Assembly: GCA_003635315.1 (NCBI GenBank)
Contig: PYJD01000023.1
Coordinates: 62,001 to 126,000 of the forward strand
Length of the DNA: 64,000 nt
Direction: 5' to 3'
Source of the DNA: Candidatus Poribacteria bacterium
GTDB lineage: Bacteria; Poribacteria; WGA-4E; WGA-3G
Shown here piece after piece: positions 53,723 through 60,643 of the stretch. A program made the position numbers and the translations under genes. A model generated the notes under the pieces. The model was not told the origin of the DNA. It did no database searches and worked only from the letters and a program-made list of their open reading frames with translations. How positions within the stretch are numbered: position 1 is the stretch's first letter; every line of letters begins with the position of its first letter.

Positions 53723-54994
53723 TTATTCTTCTGACTTTGGATTTGATAAATCAGGTTGATTCTTCAGAAATATCATTAGGGGAGAAACCACTAACGGCAC
53801 TAATACTAACCCATTAAGTACAATCCACAAACCTATTTTATCTGCCATAGTTCCCACCAGCAAATTCAGTAGACCACCCACTCCCCAAGATGCACCCATC
53901 ATAAAACTTGATGCTATATTCTCATGTCCCCGTAATATCATCTGGGCTAAGATTATATTCAATGTTACTGAGCTTGAAAGAACTACATTCCCTAAAAAGA
54001 GGAATATCAGAAATAGTATACCTTTTGTATGAAGTGCTGCCAAGAGAAGTGGGGGTGCAACAATAAGTGAAAATCCTAATAGAGTAAGTGTATTGACGCG
54101 GGTTAATACAAAACCACTCCCCATTATACCCATTGATCCTGCGAATATATATAATGCAACAATGAGGGATCTGACTTGATCACTATAGTCCTGGTCATCT
54201 AAATAAATAGAAAGAAAATTCTCTAATCCAACACCCGTAACCGTTCGGAGACTCGCTATAACAAATAGGACTGTAAGGGGTAAGAGCTGTGGACCTGCAA
54301 CCACCCAAAAGGACTCCCTAACAGATACTTCATCATGAGATAGTACTCGGGAGGAAGCTGTCAAGTCGAGTTCATGTTCGAATTTCAATACAATTGGAAC
54401 AAATATCGCTACGAGAATTCCAATTCCCATCTCAAATACCATGATCGGAATCACATTCCCTACCTTAAAATTGAAACCTAAACTGTAGGGTACAAATAAT
54501 AGAGCTAAAGGACCTAAGGCACGTCCTATGTTTCCACCGGTAAGAAAGATAGATATTCCCATGCCTCTGGTTTCTGCGGCGAGTGCACCTGCATAAGTTG
54601 TTGCTTGTGGATGAAAAGCAGCAATCCCTATTCCACCAATTGCCAATAATAGGAACACATACAACTCAGATGGAGCATATATGACTAAGCTCAAACCAAT
54701 TGCTGTAAAAGCTACTCCAAAAGTAAGGAAATGAATCGTACGTATTCTATCTGATAACCAACCAAAAAGAATTTGTCCAAGCGAACTAAATATACTATAA
54801 AGTGCAATGAAAATACCGGCTAAACTGTTAGTTTTTCCAACAGATGCAAATCGATTTACGAGTCGGGGTTGGATATGTGGGAATAGAGTTGCGTAAGAAT
54901 CAAGGATGGTATGTGCAAATGTAAGAAATATGAACTGGAATAGATAAAACTGTTTTCGCGGGGTTGAGTTAGATGGTTTCTGGTTATCTTGCAT
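53723..54994 (-). CDS. MFS transporter, fosmidomycin-resistance-like
   Basis: The 423 residues have about twelve membrane helices. The loop G-W-L-S-D-R-I-R-T (about 79-87) is the MFS signature between helices 2 and 3. G-I-A-A-F-H-P-Q-A-T-T-Y-A-G near residue 125 resembles the fosmidomycin-resistance (Fsr) branch. N-G-L-V-L-V-P-L-V is in the last helix. The substrate is unknown and the gene is not necessarily a drug pump. It is 56 bases downstream of the helicase gene on the same strand. Confidence 0.85.
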   Translation of the reverse strand: MQDNQKPSNSTPRKQFYLFQFIFLTFAHTILDSYATLFPHIQPRLVNRFASVGKTNSLAGIFIALYSIFSSLGQILFGWLSDRIRTIHFLTFGVAFTAIGLSLVIYAPSELYVFLLLAIGGIGIAAFHPQATTYAGALAAETRGMGISIFLTGGNIGRALGPLALLFVPYSLGFNFKVGNVIPIMVFEMGIGILVAIFVPIVLKFEHELDLTASSRVLSHDEVSVRESFWVVAGPQLLPLTVLFVIASLRTVTGVGLENFLSIYLDDQDYSDQVRSLIVALYIFAGSMGIMGSGFVLTRVNTLTLLGFSLIVAPPLLLAALHTKGILFLIFLFLGNVVLSSSVTLNIILAQMILRGHENIASSFMMGASWGVGGLLNLLVGTMADKIGLWIVLNGLVLVPLVVSPLMIFLKNQPDLSNPKSEE

Positions 54995-55050: not shown

Positions 55051-56766
55051 TCAAGTATTGAGTTTTTTCATCTTCCTTCTATCCCACCAATAAAAATACT
55101 GTCGGATATAATAACCGAGATTCTTAGATATCTTTTGGTATTCAGGAACAAATTGACATGTTCCACCAAGAACAATCAACTCATCCTTAGCCCGTGTCAT
55201 AGCTACATAAAACACACGTCGTTCTTCTGCAAGTATGGTGTCTCGTCGTGGGAATCTCCTGTCAAGCGTATTGTGAATGAGAATCACTCTATCCCATTCT
55301 CTTCCTTTTGCTTTATGTATAGTTGTCACCTCTATTGTATCAGATGTAGATATATCAGAAATCATGTCATTAATTTTATCTACCTCATAGTTTGTTCTTA
55401 CAAGGATCGCAGTCTCAATTGGCTGGGAGAGTTCATCCAAGAGATGAAGAGTAATAGTTTCAGGTGTTGTATCTAATCCTTTTATATGGGATTTGATGGG
55501 GTTAAATGCACGTAAGTTTTTCCGAATCCGTGGGTTATTACGTTCTATCAATGCTCGTGCATGCTCAACAATAGTAGATGTGCATCGATAGTTACGTGTA
55601 ATCTCATATTTCTTAACATCATTCCGTTCAGAGAATTGCAGCATTATTTTAGAATCTCCGCCCCGAAAACTGTAGATTGCTTGATCGTCGTCACCAACAG
55701 CAAACAGATTTTCAGATAGGTTTGATATAAGTCTGAAATCTGATGGGGCAATATCTTGAAACTCGTCTACAAGGACAAATGGAAAACGTTCACAATAAGT
55801 TTGTCTTATGTCGGGGTAAGTTTCCAATAGGTTAGCAGCAAATATTACCATATCTTCGAAATCAATTGCATTCGCCTGAGATTTCTTACTTTCATATTTC
55901 TTAGCAAATTCTTTAACGATTGGGTCTTCTATATTACTTGGGTCAAATAAACCTGATTCTACTTGTCGTTTTGAACGCATGACGATTTCTTTGATTTCAT
56001 GAAATCTATCTGTCATGTTCTCAAAATCTGGATTTCGATCAGAATGTTCTATATAGGGTATATCAAAATGTTGACAGAACATCTCAATCATAATTTGATT
56101 ACTATATTGTTGTCGTAAAGGATCAGCACGATTGAATATTTCCCCTATTTCTTTGTGATAGCGGATCCAATATGCTTCACGATGATTTGCTTCTCCACCA
56201 GAAACCCTCTCCAATATAGAAAAACTAAACCGATTCTCTCCTTCTGAACCGATAGCCTGACGAAGTCTATCATTTGATGACCCCGTGAAGTGTTCCCGTT
56301 TACGTCGTTCAGGATTAGTTGTCTGACCAATATAACACTTTCCTGTGAAGGTATTCTCTATTTTATATATTGAGACTGGTGATGTTGCAGCTGACTGGAG
56401 AATCTGTTTCGTTTCATCTGTAATGATCCGCTCTATTTCTCCAGACCAGATTTGTGGGAGATCCTTAAATCCTGCTTTCTGATAGTGTTCTGTGATTATG
56501 TCTTTACCAAAAGCGTGTAGCGTACGGATATTCGGCAATTCGTTCTGTGATGGCAGTTCCCGAATTATCCGAGTTTCCATCTCTTCAACTGCTTTTCTGT
56601 TGAAGGCGATTGCAAGTATTTGGGTTGGTAGGATATTGTAGGATTGTATGAGATTGAGAATACGAGCGGTTATTACTGTTGTTTTACCACTTCCTGGTCC
56701 AGCAACAACAATCGCTGGACCCTTGAAATGGTTGACAGCATTTTGTTGGTTTTTATCTAATCTCAT
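55051..56766 (-). CDS. UvrD-like helicase with an internal GIY-YIG nuclease domain
   Basis: The 571-residue superfamily 1A helicase has all main motifs: Q7, Walker A G-P-G-S-G-K-T (23-29), A-F-N-R-K-A (54-59), T-L-H-A-F-G (82-87), V-D-E-F-Q-D (333-338), G-D-D-D-Q-A-I-Y-S-F-R-G (358-369), N-Y-R-C (392-395), T-I-H-K-A-K-G-R-E-W (482-491) and V-A-M-T-R-A-K-D-E (521-529). Between motif Ib and domain 1B, residues about 131-212 form a GIY-YIG nuclease: S-I-Y-K-I-E-N, C-Y-I-G-Q-T (144-149), R154-R155, and E197 in N-H-R-E-A-Y-W. All expected catalytic positions (Tyr, Tyr, Arg, Glu) are present. The 2B domain is short. It could unwind and cut branched or damaged DNA. Confidence 0.9.
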   Translation of the reverse strand: MRLDKNQQNAVNHFKGPAIVVAGPGSGKTTVITARILNLIQSYNILPTQILAIAFNRKAVEEMETRIIRELPSQNELPNIRTLHAFGKDIITEHYQKAGFKDLPQIWSGEIERIITDETKQILQSAATSPVSIYKIENTFTGKCYIGQTTNPERRKREHFTGSSNDRLRQAIGSEGENRFSFSILERVSGGEANHREAYWIRYHKEIGEIFNRADPLRQQYSNQIMIEMFCQHFDIPYIEHSDRNPDFENMTDRFHEIKEIVMRSKRQVESGLFDPSNIEDPIVKEFAKKYESKKSQANAIDFEDMVIFAANLLETYPDIRQTYCERFPFVLVDEFQDIAPSDFRLISNLSENLFAVGDDDQAIYSFRGGDSKIMLQFSERNDVKKYEITRNYRCTSTIVEHARALIERNNPRIRKNLRAFNPIKSHIKGLDTTPETITLHLLDELSQPIETAILVRTNYEVDKINDMISDISTSDTIEVTTIHKAKGREWDRVILIHNTLDRRFPRRDTILAEERRVFYVAMTRAKDELIVLGGTCQFVPEYQKISKNLGYYIRQYFYWWDRRKMKKLNT

Positions 56767-56875: not shown

Positions 56876-57310
56876 TCATTTAGGTATCCGTCGTACCCAT
56901 AACATCAGTGCTACATTCATTCCACCAATAAAACCGAATACATAAGATTGGATACCTGTCAATTGTACAGTTGATTTAATCAATAGAACTCCTGTAACCG
57001 GTAATCCAAGCGCAAAACAGGTAAAATATGTCAGTGTTTTTGCTCCCTTTGCTTCCCAGAAGATAATCTGACGTTTCAATACTTGTAGATACGATCTATC
57101 CCATAGTCTTGATGTCCACTTTCCTTGCATAAAACCGAGTACAATCCCAAATCCATATCCGAAACTCGACCAACGTAAATCAATATTAGGATATCTGGAG
57201 ATAAATGCTACCCATAAGACCTGTCCAACTAAAGTCAATATGATAAATACCCAAAAGACAGGTAGTTTCATATAGAATGGGAGTAATCGTCTATTAAGTT
57301 GTTCACTCAT
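56876..57310 (-). CDS. Small four-helix membrane protein overlapping purQ
   Basis: The start is the ATG at 57310, whose ATGAGTGA overlaps the purQ stop by eight bases, so it is translationally coupled. The 144 residues have about four hydrophobic helices (about 20-40, 52-64, 92-108, 120-138) with a basic loop W-T-S-R-L-W-D-R-S-Y-L. No family is recognised. A longer frame from 57361 overlaps purQ more and lacks a ribosome binding site. It may be a passenger of the purine operon rather than a purine gene. Confidence 0.72.
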   Translation of the reverse strand: MSEQLNRRLLPFYMKLPVFWVFIILTLVGQVLWVAFISRYPNIDLRWSSFGYGFGIVLGFMQGKWTSRLWDRSYLQVLKRQIIFWEAKGAKTLTYFTCFALGLPVTGVLLIKSTVQLTGIQSYVFGFIGGMNVALMLWVRRIPK

Positions 57311-58118
57311 GAAAAGTCGCTTTTGCATAATCAACCGCGTTTTTGAATAGTACCAAACCATCCCCTTCTTCTGGAAGATCCTCTCTTGTCCAGCGTGGAT
57401 GATTCCATTTAGTGAGAAATCGCTCTGGATGTGGCATTAAACCGAAGATTCTACCTGTAATATCACAAATACCAGCGATATTGGAATCAGATCCATTTGG
57501 ATTATTGGGATATTCAATATTGTCAGACGAGTGGTGTGAAGCGTTGCTATATCTAAATACAACTTGTTGATTGTTTTCTAATTCGTCTAAGACTTCCTGT
57601 GGAGCAGTAAATCGTCCTTCCGCATGGGCAACCGGAAGATAGAGGTTAGGTTTAATACCTTTGGTGAATATACATTGGTTCACTTCAGTTTTAAGATTAA
57701 CCCATCGACATTCGAACCTTGTGGATGTATTCATAGCCAATGTGCTACGTTGCGGCATATCTATGTTTGTTGCATTTTTCTCCGTTGATAATCCGGGTAA
57801 TAATCCAGTCCGGACAAGTACTTGAAATCCGTTACATATTCCAATTATCAACTTTTTGTCAGCAACAAATTCTTCCAAGACATTACTCAGTTTATGTCTC
57901 ATCTCAACTGCCAGTAGTATACCCGCTGCAATATCATCACCGTATGAAAATCCACCTGGAATTGCAAGGATGTGATAATCGGAAAGATCCACCTTACCTG
58001 AAATTAGGTTTTGTATATGGACTAAATCTGTTTGTCCTCCAGCCAGTTTAAATGCCACTGCAGTCTCAGAATCACAGTTTGTTCCGGCTGTTCGAAGAAT
58101 TAGTACTTTCGGTTTCAA
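57303..58118 (-). CDS. purQ: Phosphoribosylformylglycinamidine synthase, glutaminase subunit
   Basis: PurQ releases ammonia from glutamine for PurL in step four of purine synthesis. The class I glutamine amidotransferase triad is visible: Cys in I-I-G-I-C-N-G-F-Q-V-L, and His plus Glu in L-M-P-H-P-E-R-F. Also present are the N-terminal L-I-L-R-T-A-G-T-N-C-D and P-G-G-F-S-Y-G-D-D. The preferred start is a TTG at 58118 with AGGAG seven bases upstream (271 residues); a GTG at 58148 would add ten residues. It lies downstream of purL and overlaps a small membrane-protein gene. Confidence 0.92.
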   Translation of the reverse strand: MKPKVLILRTAGTNCDSETAVAFKLAGGQTDLVHIQNLISGKVDLSDYHILAIPGGFSYGDDIAAGILLAVEMRHKLSNVLEEFVADKKLIIGICNGFQVLVRTGLLPGLSTEKNATNIDMPQRSTLAMNTSTRFECRWVNLKTEVNQCIFTKGIKPNLYLPVAHAEGRFTAPQEVLDELENNQQVVFRYSNASHHSSDNIEYPNNPNGSDSNIAGICDITGRIFGLMPHPERFLTKWNHPRWTREDLPEEGDGLVLFKNAVDYAKATFHE

Positions 58119-58162
58119 CCTCTTTCTCCTATACTCATTAGAACACACATCTACCTAAATGG

Positions 58163-60559
58163 TTACGAATGTAATGGTGTTTGCCATGCTGACTTAAGTT
58201 TATCAATTGTCGTTTCTATGATAGCATTCCCTTCTAATCCGTTTAGAATGAACTCGTTTGATTCTATTGATTTTCCAATATGACCAAATGGTATACCATT
58301 CATCTGATTCTCAAACTCGGTTTGAATTGCTGGTTCTACTTCAACTATAAATCGGCTATTAGATTCTGAGAAGAGTCGGAAATCATCATACGGAATATCT
58401 TCATCAACAGGGATATGTTTAAGATGTAATTCCATTCCAAACCCACCTGCAAAAGACATCTCAGCTGCAGCGACTCCTATACCTCCTTCAGAACAATCGT
58501 GGCATGAACGAACTAAACCAAGGCTAATGCTTCTACTTAAGGACTCCATAACCTGTTTACCTTCATCGGGACGAACTATAGGAGCATTATTACCTATATG
58601 ACCATGTATACCAAAATAGTGGGAACCCCCTAATTCGGTGTAGGTGTTACCTACAACATATATAAGATTTCCAGCAGCTTTTACATCCATTGTAACGGCA
58701 CAATTTACATCAGATATTACACAGATCCCTGAAATTAAGAGTGTAGCAGGAATTGCACGTTGTTCACCTGTTGTTGTGTCTCTATATTCGTTATAAAGAC
58801 TATCTTTACCAGAAATAAAAGGTGTACCATAAGCAGTAGCAATGTCATAACATGCCTTCGCTGCTCTAACCAATTCTCCGAGTCTATCCGGTTTATCTGG
58901 ATTACCCCAACAGAAATTATCTAATAATGCAGTTTTTTCAAGTGTTCCACCAACAGCAATTATATTTCGTAATGTTTCATCAATTGCCCCCGCGGCACTA
59001 TGGTATGGGTCAACATCACTATATCTCGGATTTATACCATTTGCAACAATGACAGCCGTAGATTTTCCAATGACTGGCGTGACTACACAGGCATCACTGG
59101 GTCCATCATTTTCTATTCCAACAAGTGGTTTGATGACTACTCCCCCTTGTACTTCATGGTCATATTGTCGGATTACAGATTCTTTACTGGCAATGTTTGG
59201 ACTGGCAAGAAGATGCAAGAGGTCGTCGGTATAATCATCGATATTGTTATCACGCGATTGCATTTCACTATGTTGTTGTGGTTGCCAAACTGCTTTTTTG
59301 ACAATATCGGGAAGACCTTTATGGAGAAAACCCATATCCAAGTCACCGACTATATTGTCCTCATAAAAAACTTGCAATCTTTGGGAGTCTGTGAAACTAC
59401 CAAGTACAGTCGCTTCCACCATTTCTGATTCACATATATCCATGAGTTTATCAAGATTTTCAGGCGGTACTGCAATTACCATTCGTTCCTGTGCTTCCGA
59501 TAACCAGATCTCCCAAGGAGCTAATCCATCATATTTTAATGGTATATTTTCTAAGTGTACCTCAGCACCAGTATCCTCACCCATTTCACCGACAGCTGAA
59601 GAAAACCCACCTGCACCACAATCAGTTATGGATCGATATAGATTTCTGTCCCGCGCCTGTAATAATGCATCAACAATTCTCTTCTCCATGATAGGATTGC
59701 CAATTTGTACTACACTTCCAAGGTTTTCTGATGTATCATCCAATTCTGCTGATGAGAATGTTGCCCCGTGGATACCATCACGACCTGTACGTCCACCTAT
59801 AGCAACGATCAGGTCACCAGGTTCAACTGATTTATCACATCTATCCCTTGGAATTAATCCTACATTTCCACAGAATACAAGCGGGTTAGCCGTATATCGT
59901 GAGTCAAATAATATTGCTCCGTTAGCTGTAGGTATTCCCATTCGATTTCCATAATCTCGTACCCCAGAAACTACCCCTTTAAATACTCGTTTAGGATGTA
60001 ATGTTCCTTTAGGTAAATCTTCATACGACATATCGGGTAAGCCAAAACAGAAGACATCTGTATTTAATATAGGTTTCGCTCCAAGTCCAGTTCCTAATGA
60101 ATCCCTTATGACCCCTCCAATACCCGTACCTGCTCCACCGTAAGGTTCAATTGCAGATGGATGGTTATGGGTTTCAACTTTAAAGACAATGTTATTTTCA
60201 TCATCGAATTCAATTATTCCAGCATTATCTGAAAAGACGGATACACACCACGGTTTATCTATTTCTTCTGTTGCACGTTGTATATAGGTCGGAAATAGTC
60301 CATGAATCCGTTCAGTATTTTTCTCTGGTTCTGAGTATTCAATGATACATTTAAAGGTTTTATGAACACAATGTTCTGACCAGGTCTGTGCTATTGTCTC
60401 AAGTTCTACATCCGTTGGATTACGTTGTAATGTCCTAAAATGTGACTGGATAGTCTGCATCTCTTTTAGGTTCAATGACAATGTTCCTTCACGACTAATT
60501 CGCATTAATTCATCATCATCAGCATTGAGAATCTCAAATTCACTTACCTGAGTAGACAT
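58163..60559 (-). CDS. purL: Phosphoribosylformylglycinamidine synthase, large subunit (small-type PurL)
   Basis: PurL makes FGAM from FGAR, ATP and ammonia. The 798 residues from the ATG at 60559 (GGAG upstream) are the small-type PurL that normally needs PurS and PurQ. Landmarks are the catalytic W-S-E-H-C-V-H-K-T near residue 57, H-N-H-P-S-A-I-E-P-Y-G-G-A (about 128-140), G-G-R-T-G-R-D-G-I-H-G-A-T-F (about 258-271), S-G-K-D-S-L-Y-N-E and D-C-S-E-G-G-I-G-V-A-A-A-E. No purS is seen on either side. Confidence 0.93.
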   Translation of the reverse strand: MSTQVSEFEILNADDDELMRISREGTLSLNLKEMQTIQSHFRTLQRNPTDVELETIAQTWSEHCVHKTFKCIIEYSEPEKNTERIHGLFPTYIQRATEEIDKPWCVSVFSDNAGIIEFDDENNIVFKVETHNHPSAIEPYGGAGTGIGGVIRDSLGTGLGAKPILNTDVFCFGLPDMSYEDLPKGTLHPKRVFKGVVSGVRDYGNRMGIPTANGAILFDSRYTANPLVFCGNVGLIPRDRCDKSVEPGDLIVAIGGRTGRDGIHGATFSSAELDDTSENLGSVVQIGNPIMEKRIVDALLQARDRNLYRSITDCGAGGFSSAVGEMGEDTGAEVHLENIPLKYDGLAPWEIWLSEAQERMVIAVPPENLDKLMDICESEMVEATVLGSFTDSQRLQVFYEDNIVGDLDMGFLHKGLPDIVKKAVWQPQQHSEMQSRDNNIDDYTDDLLHLLASPNIASKESVIRQYDHEVQGGVVIKPLVGIENDGPSDACVVTPVIGKSTAVIVANGINPRYSDVDPYHSAAGAIDETLRNIIAVGGTLEKTALLDNFCWGNPDKPDRLGELVRAAKACYDIATAYGTPFISGKDSLYNEYRDTTTGEQRAIPATLLISGICVISDVNCAVTMDVKAAGNLIYVVGNTYTELGGSHYFGIHGHIGNNAPIVRPDEGKQVMESLSRSISLGLVRSCHDCSEGGIGVAAAEMSFAGGFGMELHLKHIPVDEDIPYDDFRLFSESNSRFIVEVEPAIQTEFENQMNGIPFGHIGKSIESNEFILNGLEGNAIIETTIDKLKSAWQTPLHS

Positions 60560-60643
60560 TTCAAACTCCAAAATTACAAAGATTAACCGCAGCATATGTA
60601 GCTGCGGTTGTAGTGATATTAAATGTATAGATTAAATTAGTAA

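What the first reader, a model, noticed from the sequence alone, without database searches (positions are those of the whole stretch)
55051..56766. GIY-YIG nuclease nested inside a complete UvrD-type helicase
Residues 131-212 carry the GIY-YIG landmarks (I-Y-K-I, C-Y-I-G-Q-T, Arg154/155, Glu197) inserted between helicase motif Ib and domain 1B, while every superfamily 1A motif is intact before and after. The insertion does not break the reading frame, so one chain would both unwind and cut DNA. GIY-YIG domains normally stand alone or at a terminus (UvrC, SLX1, homing enzymes). An insertion within the 1A/1B boundary would place the nuclease near the incoming DNA. This could be a repair or anti-phage effector in the spirit of helicase-nuclease fusions. 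No other defence gene is adjacent.
Basis: partly seen in the sequence, partly recalled or inferred. Interest (0 to 1): 0.8.

Follow-up and report, generated by a model that had tools for sequence, protein, structure and literature searches.

The report
Nuclease nested inside a DNA helicase
A family of Poribacteria has kept, in nearly every genome, a DNA-unwinding enzyme with a complete DNA-cutting domain grown into its middle, so one protein chain probably both opens and nicks DNA; the arrangement was found nowhere else searched, but what it does in the cell is untested.

Summary
The minus-strand ORF 55051-56766 (571 aa) is an SF1A UvrD-type helicase with all motifs intact and a complete I-TevI-type GIY-YIG domain (about residues 130-213) between motif Ib and the rest of domain 1B. 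It is not an isolated oddity: 54 of 59 genomes of this Poribacteria family carry a full-length or contig-truncated ortholog. None of 26 genomes from other families of the phylum, and none of about 1,570 sampled from four other phyla, showed the architecture. All six GIY-YIG catalytic positions (Y134, Y145, R155, H159, E197, N212) are invariant in 54/54, the domain is under purifying selection (dN/dS about 0.12), and AlphaFold gives pLDDT 90, pTM 0.84. The nearest insert-free relatives are compact 2B-less helicases of Spirochaetota. The gene sits beside purL-purQ, is inherited with PurL (r=0.91), was lost at least twice, and has no defence neighbours. Anti-phage function is therefore less likely than a chromosomal genome-maintenance role. 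Twelve genomes carry paralogs, eleven directly downstream; intact ones add GrpE and/or S1 domains and usually a second, degenerate GIY-YIG. I rate it a new variant of a known kind (helicase-nuclease fusion).

The parts
55051..56766 (-). Whole gene: 571-aa UvrD-type helicase with nested GIY-YIG nuclease
   Evidence: 54 orthologs
56680..56703 (-). Motif I (Walker A), residues 22-29 AGPGSGKT
   Evidence: K28/T29 invariant in 53/53 orthologs that cover it
56509..56529 (-). Motif Ib, residues 80-86 IRTLHAF, just upstream of the insert
   Evidence: T82/H84 54/54; invariant also in unrelated UvrD relatives
56128..56379 (-). Inserted GIY-YIG nuclease domain, residues 130-213 (catalytic Y134, Y145, R155, H159, E197, N212)
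   Evidence: Pfam PF01541, I-TevI match, order of elements b-b-a-a-b-a with pLDDT about 87-96 in all blocks of 130-209, 54/54 invariant
55870..56127 (-). Remainder of helicase domain 1B, residues 214-299
   Evidence: alignment with insert-free relatives
55753..55767 (-). Motif II (Walker B) residues 334-338 DEFQD
   Evidence: 54/54 at the four positions counted
55663..55698 (-). Motif III residues 357-368 VGDDDQAIYSFR
   Evidence: D359, Q362, Y365 54/54
55585..55602 (-). Motif IV residues 389-394 ITRNYR
   Evidence: R394 54/54
55327..55584 (-). Short connector between motifs IV and V (residues 395-480) where domain 2B would normally be; 2B absent
   Evidence: 88 residues median in family against 273 median in 60 UvrD relatives
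55297..55326 (-). Motif V residues 481-490
   Evidence: H484, K487, G488, E490 invariant in 52/52 covering sequences
55186..55227 (-). Motif VI residues 514-527 EERRVFYVAMTRAK
   Evidence: R517, T524, R525 52/52; E515 51/52
56876..57361 (-). Context: 161-aa protein without Pfam match, directly upstream and conserved with this gene
   Evidence: present in 13 of 21 loci; also in outgroup loci without the helicase
57303..58148 (-). Context: purQ (GATase_5)
58163..60595 (-). Context: purL (AIRS, FGAR-AT linker)
53723..54994 (-). Context: MFS transporter downstream

Best explanation
It is a chromosomally domesticated, single-chain helicase-nuclease. A compact UvrD-like 3'-5' motor without the autoinhibitory 2B domain acquired one GIY-YIG nuclease domain of the phage/intron homing-endonuclease type at the N-terminal end of domain 1B, once, in the ancestor of this Poribacteria family. 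Proposed working: the motor (1A/2A) loads on a 3' single-stranded tail and moves toward the single-/double-strand junction. Because the nuclease sits on the 1B side of the motor, it meets the duplex or branch just ahead of the motor and nicks one strand there. Unwinding and incision are thus coupled in one chain, serving chromosomal maintenance (removal of flaps or branched intermediates, or of damaged single strands) rather than phage defence. Shown by sequence/model: architecture, intact motifs, conserved nuclease residues, 2B loss, vertical inheritance. Inferred: polarity and activity (from SF1A homologs), single-strand nicking (from GIY-YIG enzymes), position at the junction (from UvrD/PcrA-DNA structures), and the maintenance role.
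For: Helicase and GIY-YIG domains both above curated Pfam thresholds. Confident whole-chain model, pLDDT 90.2, pTM 0.84, with canonical GIY-YIG element order at 130-207, and UvrD/PcrA/Rep as best PDB folds, E to 3.5e-27, TM about 0.6. Six catalytic positions 54/54 invariant and all tested SF1A motif residues kept, with one exception at E515. dN/dS GIY 0.12 against helicase 0.08-0.10. Motif Ib-II spacing 250 against median 129, IV-V 88 against 273. Spirochaetota 2B-less relatives lack only the insert. 2B is regulatory and its deletion activates the Rep monomer (PMC13238157). GIY-YIG of all family members forms one clade apart from free-standing homing enzymes, support 97/96. Vertical inheritance: Mantel r 0.91 with PurL. 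Conserved purL-purQ neighbourhood, outgroups with the same locus lacking the gene. UvrC is present separately, so it does not replace NER.
Against: No biochemistry. Active-site geometry not measured. The gene was lost in at least two lineages (G024, G067), so it is not essential. The neighbourhood gives no functional hint. In the paralogs the second GIY-YIG copy has lost catalytic positions, so nuclease activity is not always needed in this wider group. The functional role is inference by elimination.
Confidence: 0.5

Rival explanations
1. Anti-phage effector: a one-chain analogue of Gabija, in which the helicase part senses phage DNA ends or replication intermediates and the GIY-YIG part cuts them.
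For: PADLOC GajB profiles hit the helicase well (PDLC00117 E 2.4e-69). GajB is a UvrD-like SF1 helicase of about 494 aa whose 1A/1B domains contact its nuclease partner GajA (PMC10822852), and here the nuclease is in 1B. Lost in some lineages.
Against: GajB models hit any UvrD-like helicase; PcrA scores nearly the same (220 against 232 bits). No GajA and no defence model in 10 neighbours. Housekeeping locus, vertical inheritance, near-universal in the family.
Confidence: 0.17
2. Domesticated selfish element: the GIY-YIG domain arrived as a homing endonuclease that invaded the helicase gene and was retained with little or changed function (for example as a DNA-binding module).
For: Its closest relatives by profile are phage/intron homing enzymes: TIGR01453 E 2.3e-13, phrog_7168 E 1.9e-17, I-TevI. 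Free-standing GIY-YIG genes with downstream repeats occur in these genomes.
Against: Six catalytic residues invariant over 54 genomes and purifying selection argue that catalysis is still selected. No sporadic homing-like distribution. No homing-enzyme DNA-binding tail.
Confidence: 0.15
3. An NER-type enzyme: the chain joins a UvrC-like incision domain to a UvrD-like removal helicase, acting on lesions.
For: GIY-YIG and UvrD are the incision and removal activities of bacterial NER (established knowledge).
Against: The domain is I-TevI-type and not UvrC-type by profile. Canonical UvrC scores over the cut-off in 58 of 60 relatives. No UvrB-interacting or UvrC C-terminal nuclease domain.
Confidence: 0.1
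4. Annotation artefact: intein, frameshift fusion or misassembly.
For: An in-frame insertion into a conserved helicase could suggest an intein.
Against: No Hint/intein domain match in Pfam. Same architecture in 54 genomes with no stop inside most copies. Insert at the same site and a single clade in the tree.
Confidence: 0.01

Closest known systems
UvrD/PcrA/Rep SF1A helicases
   Same: All SF1A motifs, fold, best PDB matches
   Different: Domain 2B missing; GIY-YIG inserted in 1B; far below the PcrA/UvrD/Rep equivalog cut-offs (220 against 911 bits)
Compact 2B-less UvrD-like helicases of Spirochaetota (L044, L051, L346-L348)
   Same: Align along nearly the whole length, also lack 2B, 454-483 aa
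   Different: No GIY-YIG insert; about 30% identity
I-TevI and phage GIY-YIG homing endonucleases (1mk0; TIGR01453; phrog_7168)
   Same: GIY-YIG domain of the same type, six catalytic positions aligned
   Different: No NUMOD or other homing DNA-binding tail; below the TIGR01453 cut-off (50.7 against 56.05); carried inside a helicase
Tlr1/Tlr8 helicase-GIY-YIG fusion of Tetrahymena polinton-like elements (PMC1564403, PMC3671162, PMC12721341)
   Same: SF1 helicase and I-TevI-like GIY-YIG in one chain
   Different: GIY-YIG at the C terminus, part of a pPolB-helicase chain, mobile element of a eukaryote
Gabija GajA-GajB (PMC10822852)
   Same: UvrD-like helicase working with a nuclease; contact through 1A/1B
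   Different: Two proteins, OLD/TOPRIM nuclease, defence context; none of these here
HsdR-like protein with internal GIY-YIG (noted in PMC1564403)
   Same: GIY-YIG inserted inside a larger restriction/helicase-type protein
   Different: Type I restriction subunit, insertion at about residue 800

Membership tests
UvrD-like SF1A helicase | Motifs I, Ia, Ib, II, III, IV, V, VI present and conserved | tested here: met
UvrD-like SF1A helicase | Four subdomains 1A, 1B, 2A, 2B | tested here: not met
   2B absent: 88 residues between motifs IV and V against median 273
UvrD-like SF1A helicase | ATP-dependent 3'-5' translocation | not testable with these tools
   needs biochemistry
PcrA/UvrD/Rep equivalogs (NCBIfam) | Score above equivalog cut-off | tested here: not met
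   220.4 against 911.2 (PcrA), 192.4 against 951.45 (Rep), 176.5 against 1144.45 (UvrD)
GIY-YIG nuclease superfamily | Pfam PF01541 above gathering score | tested here: met
   36.6 against 22.6 bits
GIY-YIG nuclease superfamily | Conserved Tyr, Tyr, Arg, Glu (plus His/Asn in the I-TevI type) | tested here: met
   54/54 at Y134, Y145, R155, H159, E197, N212; aligned with I-TevI
GIY-YIG nuclease superfamily | b-b-a-a-b-a fold with one active site | tested here: inconclusive
   element order met in a confident model; side-chain distances could not be measured
Group I intron/homing endonuclease (TIGR01453) | Score above cut-off and C-terminal DNA-binding (NUMOD) region | tested here: not met
   50.7 against 56.05 bits; no NUMOD match
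Gabija (GajB) | Adjacent GajA nuclease gene | tested here: not met
   no PADLOC match in 10 neighbours
UvrC | UvrC family score over cut-off | tested here: not met
   no UvrC family match for this protein; separate UvrC genes found in relatives
Intein-containing helicase | Hint splicing domain | tested here: not met
   no such Pfam match at E<=1

The most novel reading that the evidence does not exclude
A new class of one-chain DNA-processing enzyme: an unleashed (2B-less) SF1A motor whose duplex-side domain 1B carries the nuclease, so that incision happens at the unwinding junction itself. In Poribacteria it gave rise to tandem paralogs joining helicase, tandem GIY-YIG, GrpE and S1 domains, which would link DNA (or R-loop) processing to a chaperone and RNA/ribosome-binding module.
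Probability: 0.3. Interest if true: 0.7.

Novelty: new variant of a known kind. Interest (0 to 1): 0.55.

Why it matters
Helicase-nuclease couplings (AddAB, RecBCD, Gabija, Dna2) normally place the nuclease at a terminus or in a partner protein. Here it is nested inside the motor on the duplex-contacting side and has been kept with its catalytic residues across a whole bacterial family. If active, it would be a small, testable enzyme that unwinds and nicks at one place, and a clear case of a homing-type nuclease turned into a core cellular enzyme. It also gives a natural helicase without domain 2B, which bears on how UvrD-type motors are regulated.

Tried and rejected
Rejected: intein or artefact (no Hint domain, 54 genomes). 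Replacement of UvrC (canonical UvrC present). Gabija membership (no GajA). Recent mobile origin (single clade, vertical inheritance). Searches for the architecture elsewhere gave nothing: 78 nearest helicase loci from GTDB other than the two Poribacteria records, 80 viral helicase loci, 80 viral GIY-YIG loci with no helicase in the same ORF, phage and plasmid collections with no place covering 80% of the query, 26 genomes of other Poribacteria-phylum families, and about 1,570 genomes of four other phyla. In the last set only the three best candidates per genome were scored, and three of the four searches had no positive control, so they are weak negatives. A first structure prediction from 21 close orthologs left the motor core unsure (pLDDT 76); adding 60 helicases solved it. 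The first alignment attempt mixed strands and was redone. Literature searches found no paper describing a UvrD protein with an inserted GIY-YIG, within an open-access library only.

Full report
WHAT IS THERE. The ORF at 55051-56766 lies on the minus strand and encodes 571 aa without interruption. Pfam finds UvrD-helicase (E 1.6e-62), UvrD_C (2.3e-22) and, inside the first, GIY-YIG at 132-205 with 36.6 bits against a gathering score of 22.6. A profile of the inserted segment picks out I-TevI in the PDB and aligns Y134, Y145, R155, H159, E197 and N212 with the I-TevI catalytic residues.

STRUCTURE. With 81 sequences AlphaFold gives pLDDT 90.2 and pTM 0.84. Residues 130-207 show strand, strand, helix, helix, strand, helix, the canonical GIY-YIG order, and blocks from 130 to 209 have pLDDT about 87-96. 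The best PDB folds are UvrD, PcrA and Rep (E to 3.5e-27, TM about 0.6). Coordinates are not exported, so active-site distances were not measured.

WHERE THE INSERT SITS AND WHAT IS MISSING. Against 60 insert-free UvrD relatives, the stretch from motif Ib to motif II is 250 residues in the family and 129 (median) elsewhere; the stretch from motif IV to V is 88 against 273. So about 120 residues were gained at the start of 1B, and domain 2B is absent. The best matches in the Spirochaetota sample are compact helicases of 454-483 aa that also lack 2B and align along nearly the whole chain with a single gap at the insert. Domain 2B is regulatory in this family and its deletion activates a Rep monomer (PMC13238157), so this motor is expected to be active without it (inference).

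DISTRIBUTION. The genome is a Candidatus Poribacteria; the nearest named record is MAG SB0202. In the order, 54 of 59 genomes of family f1 match at E<=1e-100 and none of 14 in the other families. A search with the insert region in 85 genomes of the phylum finds the fused form only in f1. Of the five exceptions, one has a fragment at a contig end (G010), one has no purQ in the assembly (G061) and one has purQ at a contig end (G063). G024 and G067 have the purL-purQ locus without the gene. Outgroup genomes G036 and G044 have purL, purQ and the adjacent small protein without the helicase. One gain at the base of the family and at least two losses fit these data.

SELECTION AND HISTORY. In 54 orthologs (52-53 cover some end motifs) the six nuclease positions and the tested helicase motif residues are invariant, except E515 in one sequence. 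The chance that six given positions all fall among the 28 invariant of 84 in the domain is about 0.001. Median dN/dS is 0.12 in the nuclease and 0.08-0.10 in the helicase parts (many pairs are saturated at synonymous sites and were left out). Distances follow those of PurL (Mantel r 0.91, 0 of 2000 permutations). The nuclease domains of core genes and paralogs form one clade (support 97/96) apart from phage and free-standing poribacterial GIY-YIG domains (few columns, so only the main split is used).

NEIGHBOURHOOD. The window gene is flanked by a 161-aa protein, purQ and purL upstream and an MFS transporter downstream. purL, purQ and the small protein recur in 13-14 of 21 loci. None of ten neighbours matches a defence model. 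PADLOC GajB profiles hit the helicase itself (E 2.4e-69), but at a score close to that of PcrA (232 against 220 bits), so this is general UvrD similarity.

PARALOGS. Twelve of the 59 family genomes carry a further family member. In eleven it lies 0.1-1.9 kb downstream on the same strand; in G074 it is on another contig. Several are cut by contig ends. The five scanned by Pfam are 1150-1675 aa: S1 domains in four of five, GrpE in four of five, and an Hfq-like match (E 6.6e-5) in one. Most have two GIY-YIG copies, of which the second has lost catalytic positions such as the Arg. These are derivatives of the core gene.

MECHANISM. I propose a domesticated helicase-nuclease of genome maintenance: a 2B-less motor with its nuclease on the duplex side, nicking one strand at or near the unwinding junction. 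Architecture, conservation and history are shown; polarity, activity, substrate and role are inferred. The main rival is an anti-phage effector, disfavoured by the locus, vertical inheritance and lack of defence neighbours but not excluded.

COMPARISON AND NOVELTY. GIY-YIG joined to an SF1 helicase is known in Tetrahymena Tlr elements, at the C terminus, and GIY-YIG inserted inside an HsdR-like protein has been noted. I found no report of a GIY-YIG nested in a UvrD domain 1B. I class it as a new variant of helicase-nuclease fusion. The wide negative searches are limited, as stated under Tried and rejected.

Noticed in passing
L031:4108-9135, L023:10063-14079, L028:11115-15389, L029:6540-10391, L026:10747-14199, L027:11355-14684, L030:4427-8128: Long paralogs downstream of the core gene: helicase with one or two GIY-YIG copies (second one degenerate) plus GrpE and/or S1 domains. 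A GrpE-S1 tail on a helicase-nuclease is very odd.
   Followed up: partly
L031:4108-9135 (between GrpE and S1), L342-L345: A domain of about 108 aa between GrpE and S1 (pattern YLDRL...YC.G...LCT..FR.FW..MW) found in only 5 of 60 relatives and only inside these paralogs.
   Followed up: partly
L212-L216: Free-standing GIY-YIG genes with downstream repeats like those of homing enzymes in Poribacteria genomes; two copies with the same GIY-YIG domain in G035 contig C3.
   Followed up: no
G000:C30:12273-12980 and relatives: A second widespread protein of about 250-280 aa matches only the first 230 positions of UvrC, beside full UvrC; the window's own assembly (90% complete) shows no full UvrC.
   Followed up: no
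L044:9923-11341, L051:7825-9153, L346-L348: Compact UvrD-like helicases of Spirochaetota that lack domain 2B; L044 sits among housekeeping genes.
   Followed up: partly
window 57303-57361: The 161-aa ORF (56876-57361) and the purQ ORF (57303-58148) overlap by 59 bases on the same strand in a different frame; the start of the smaller gene may be further in.
   Followed up: no
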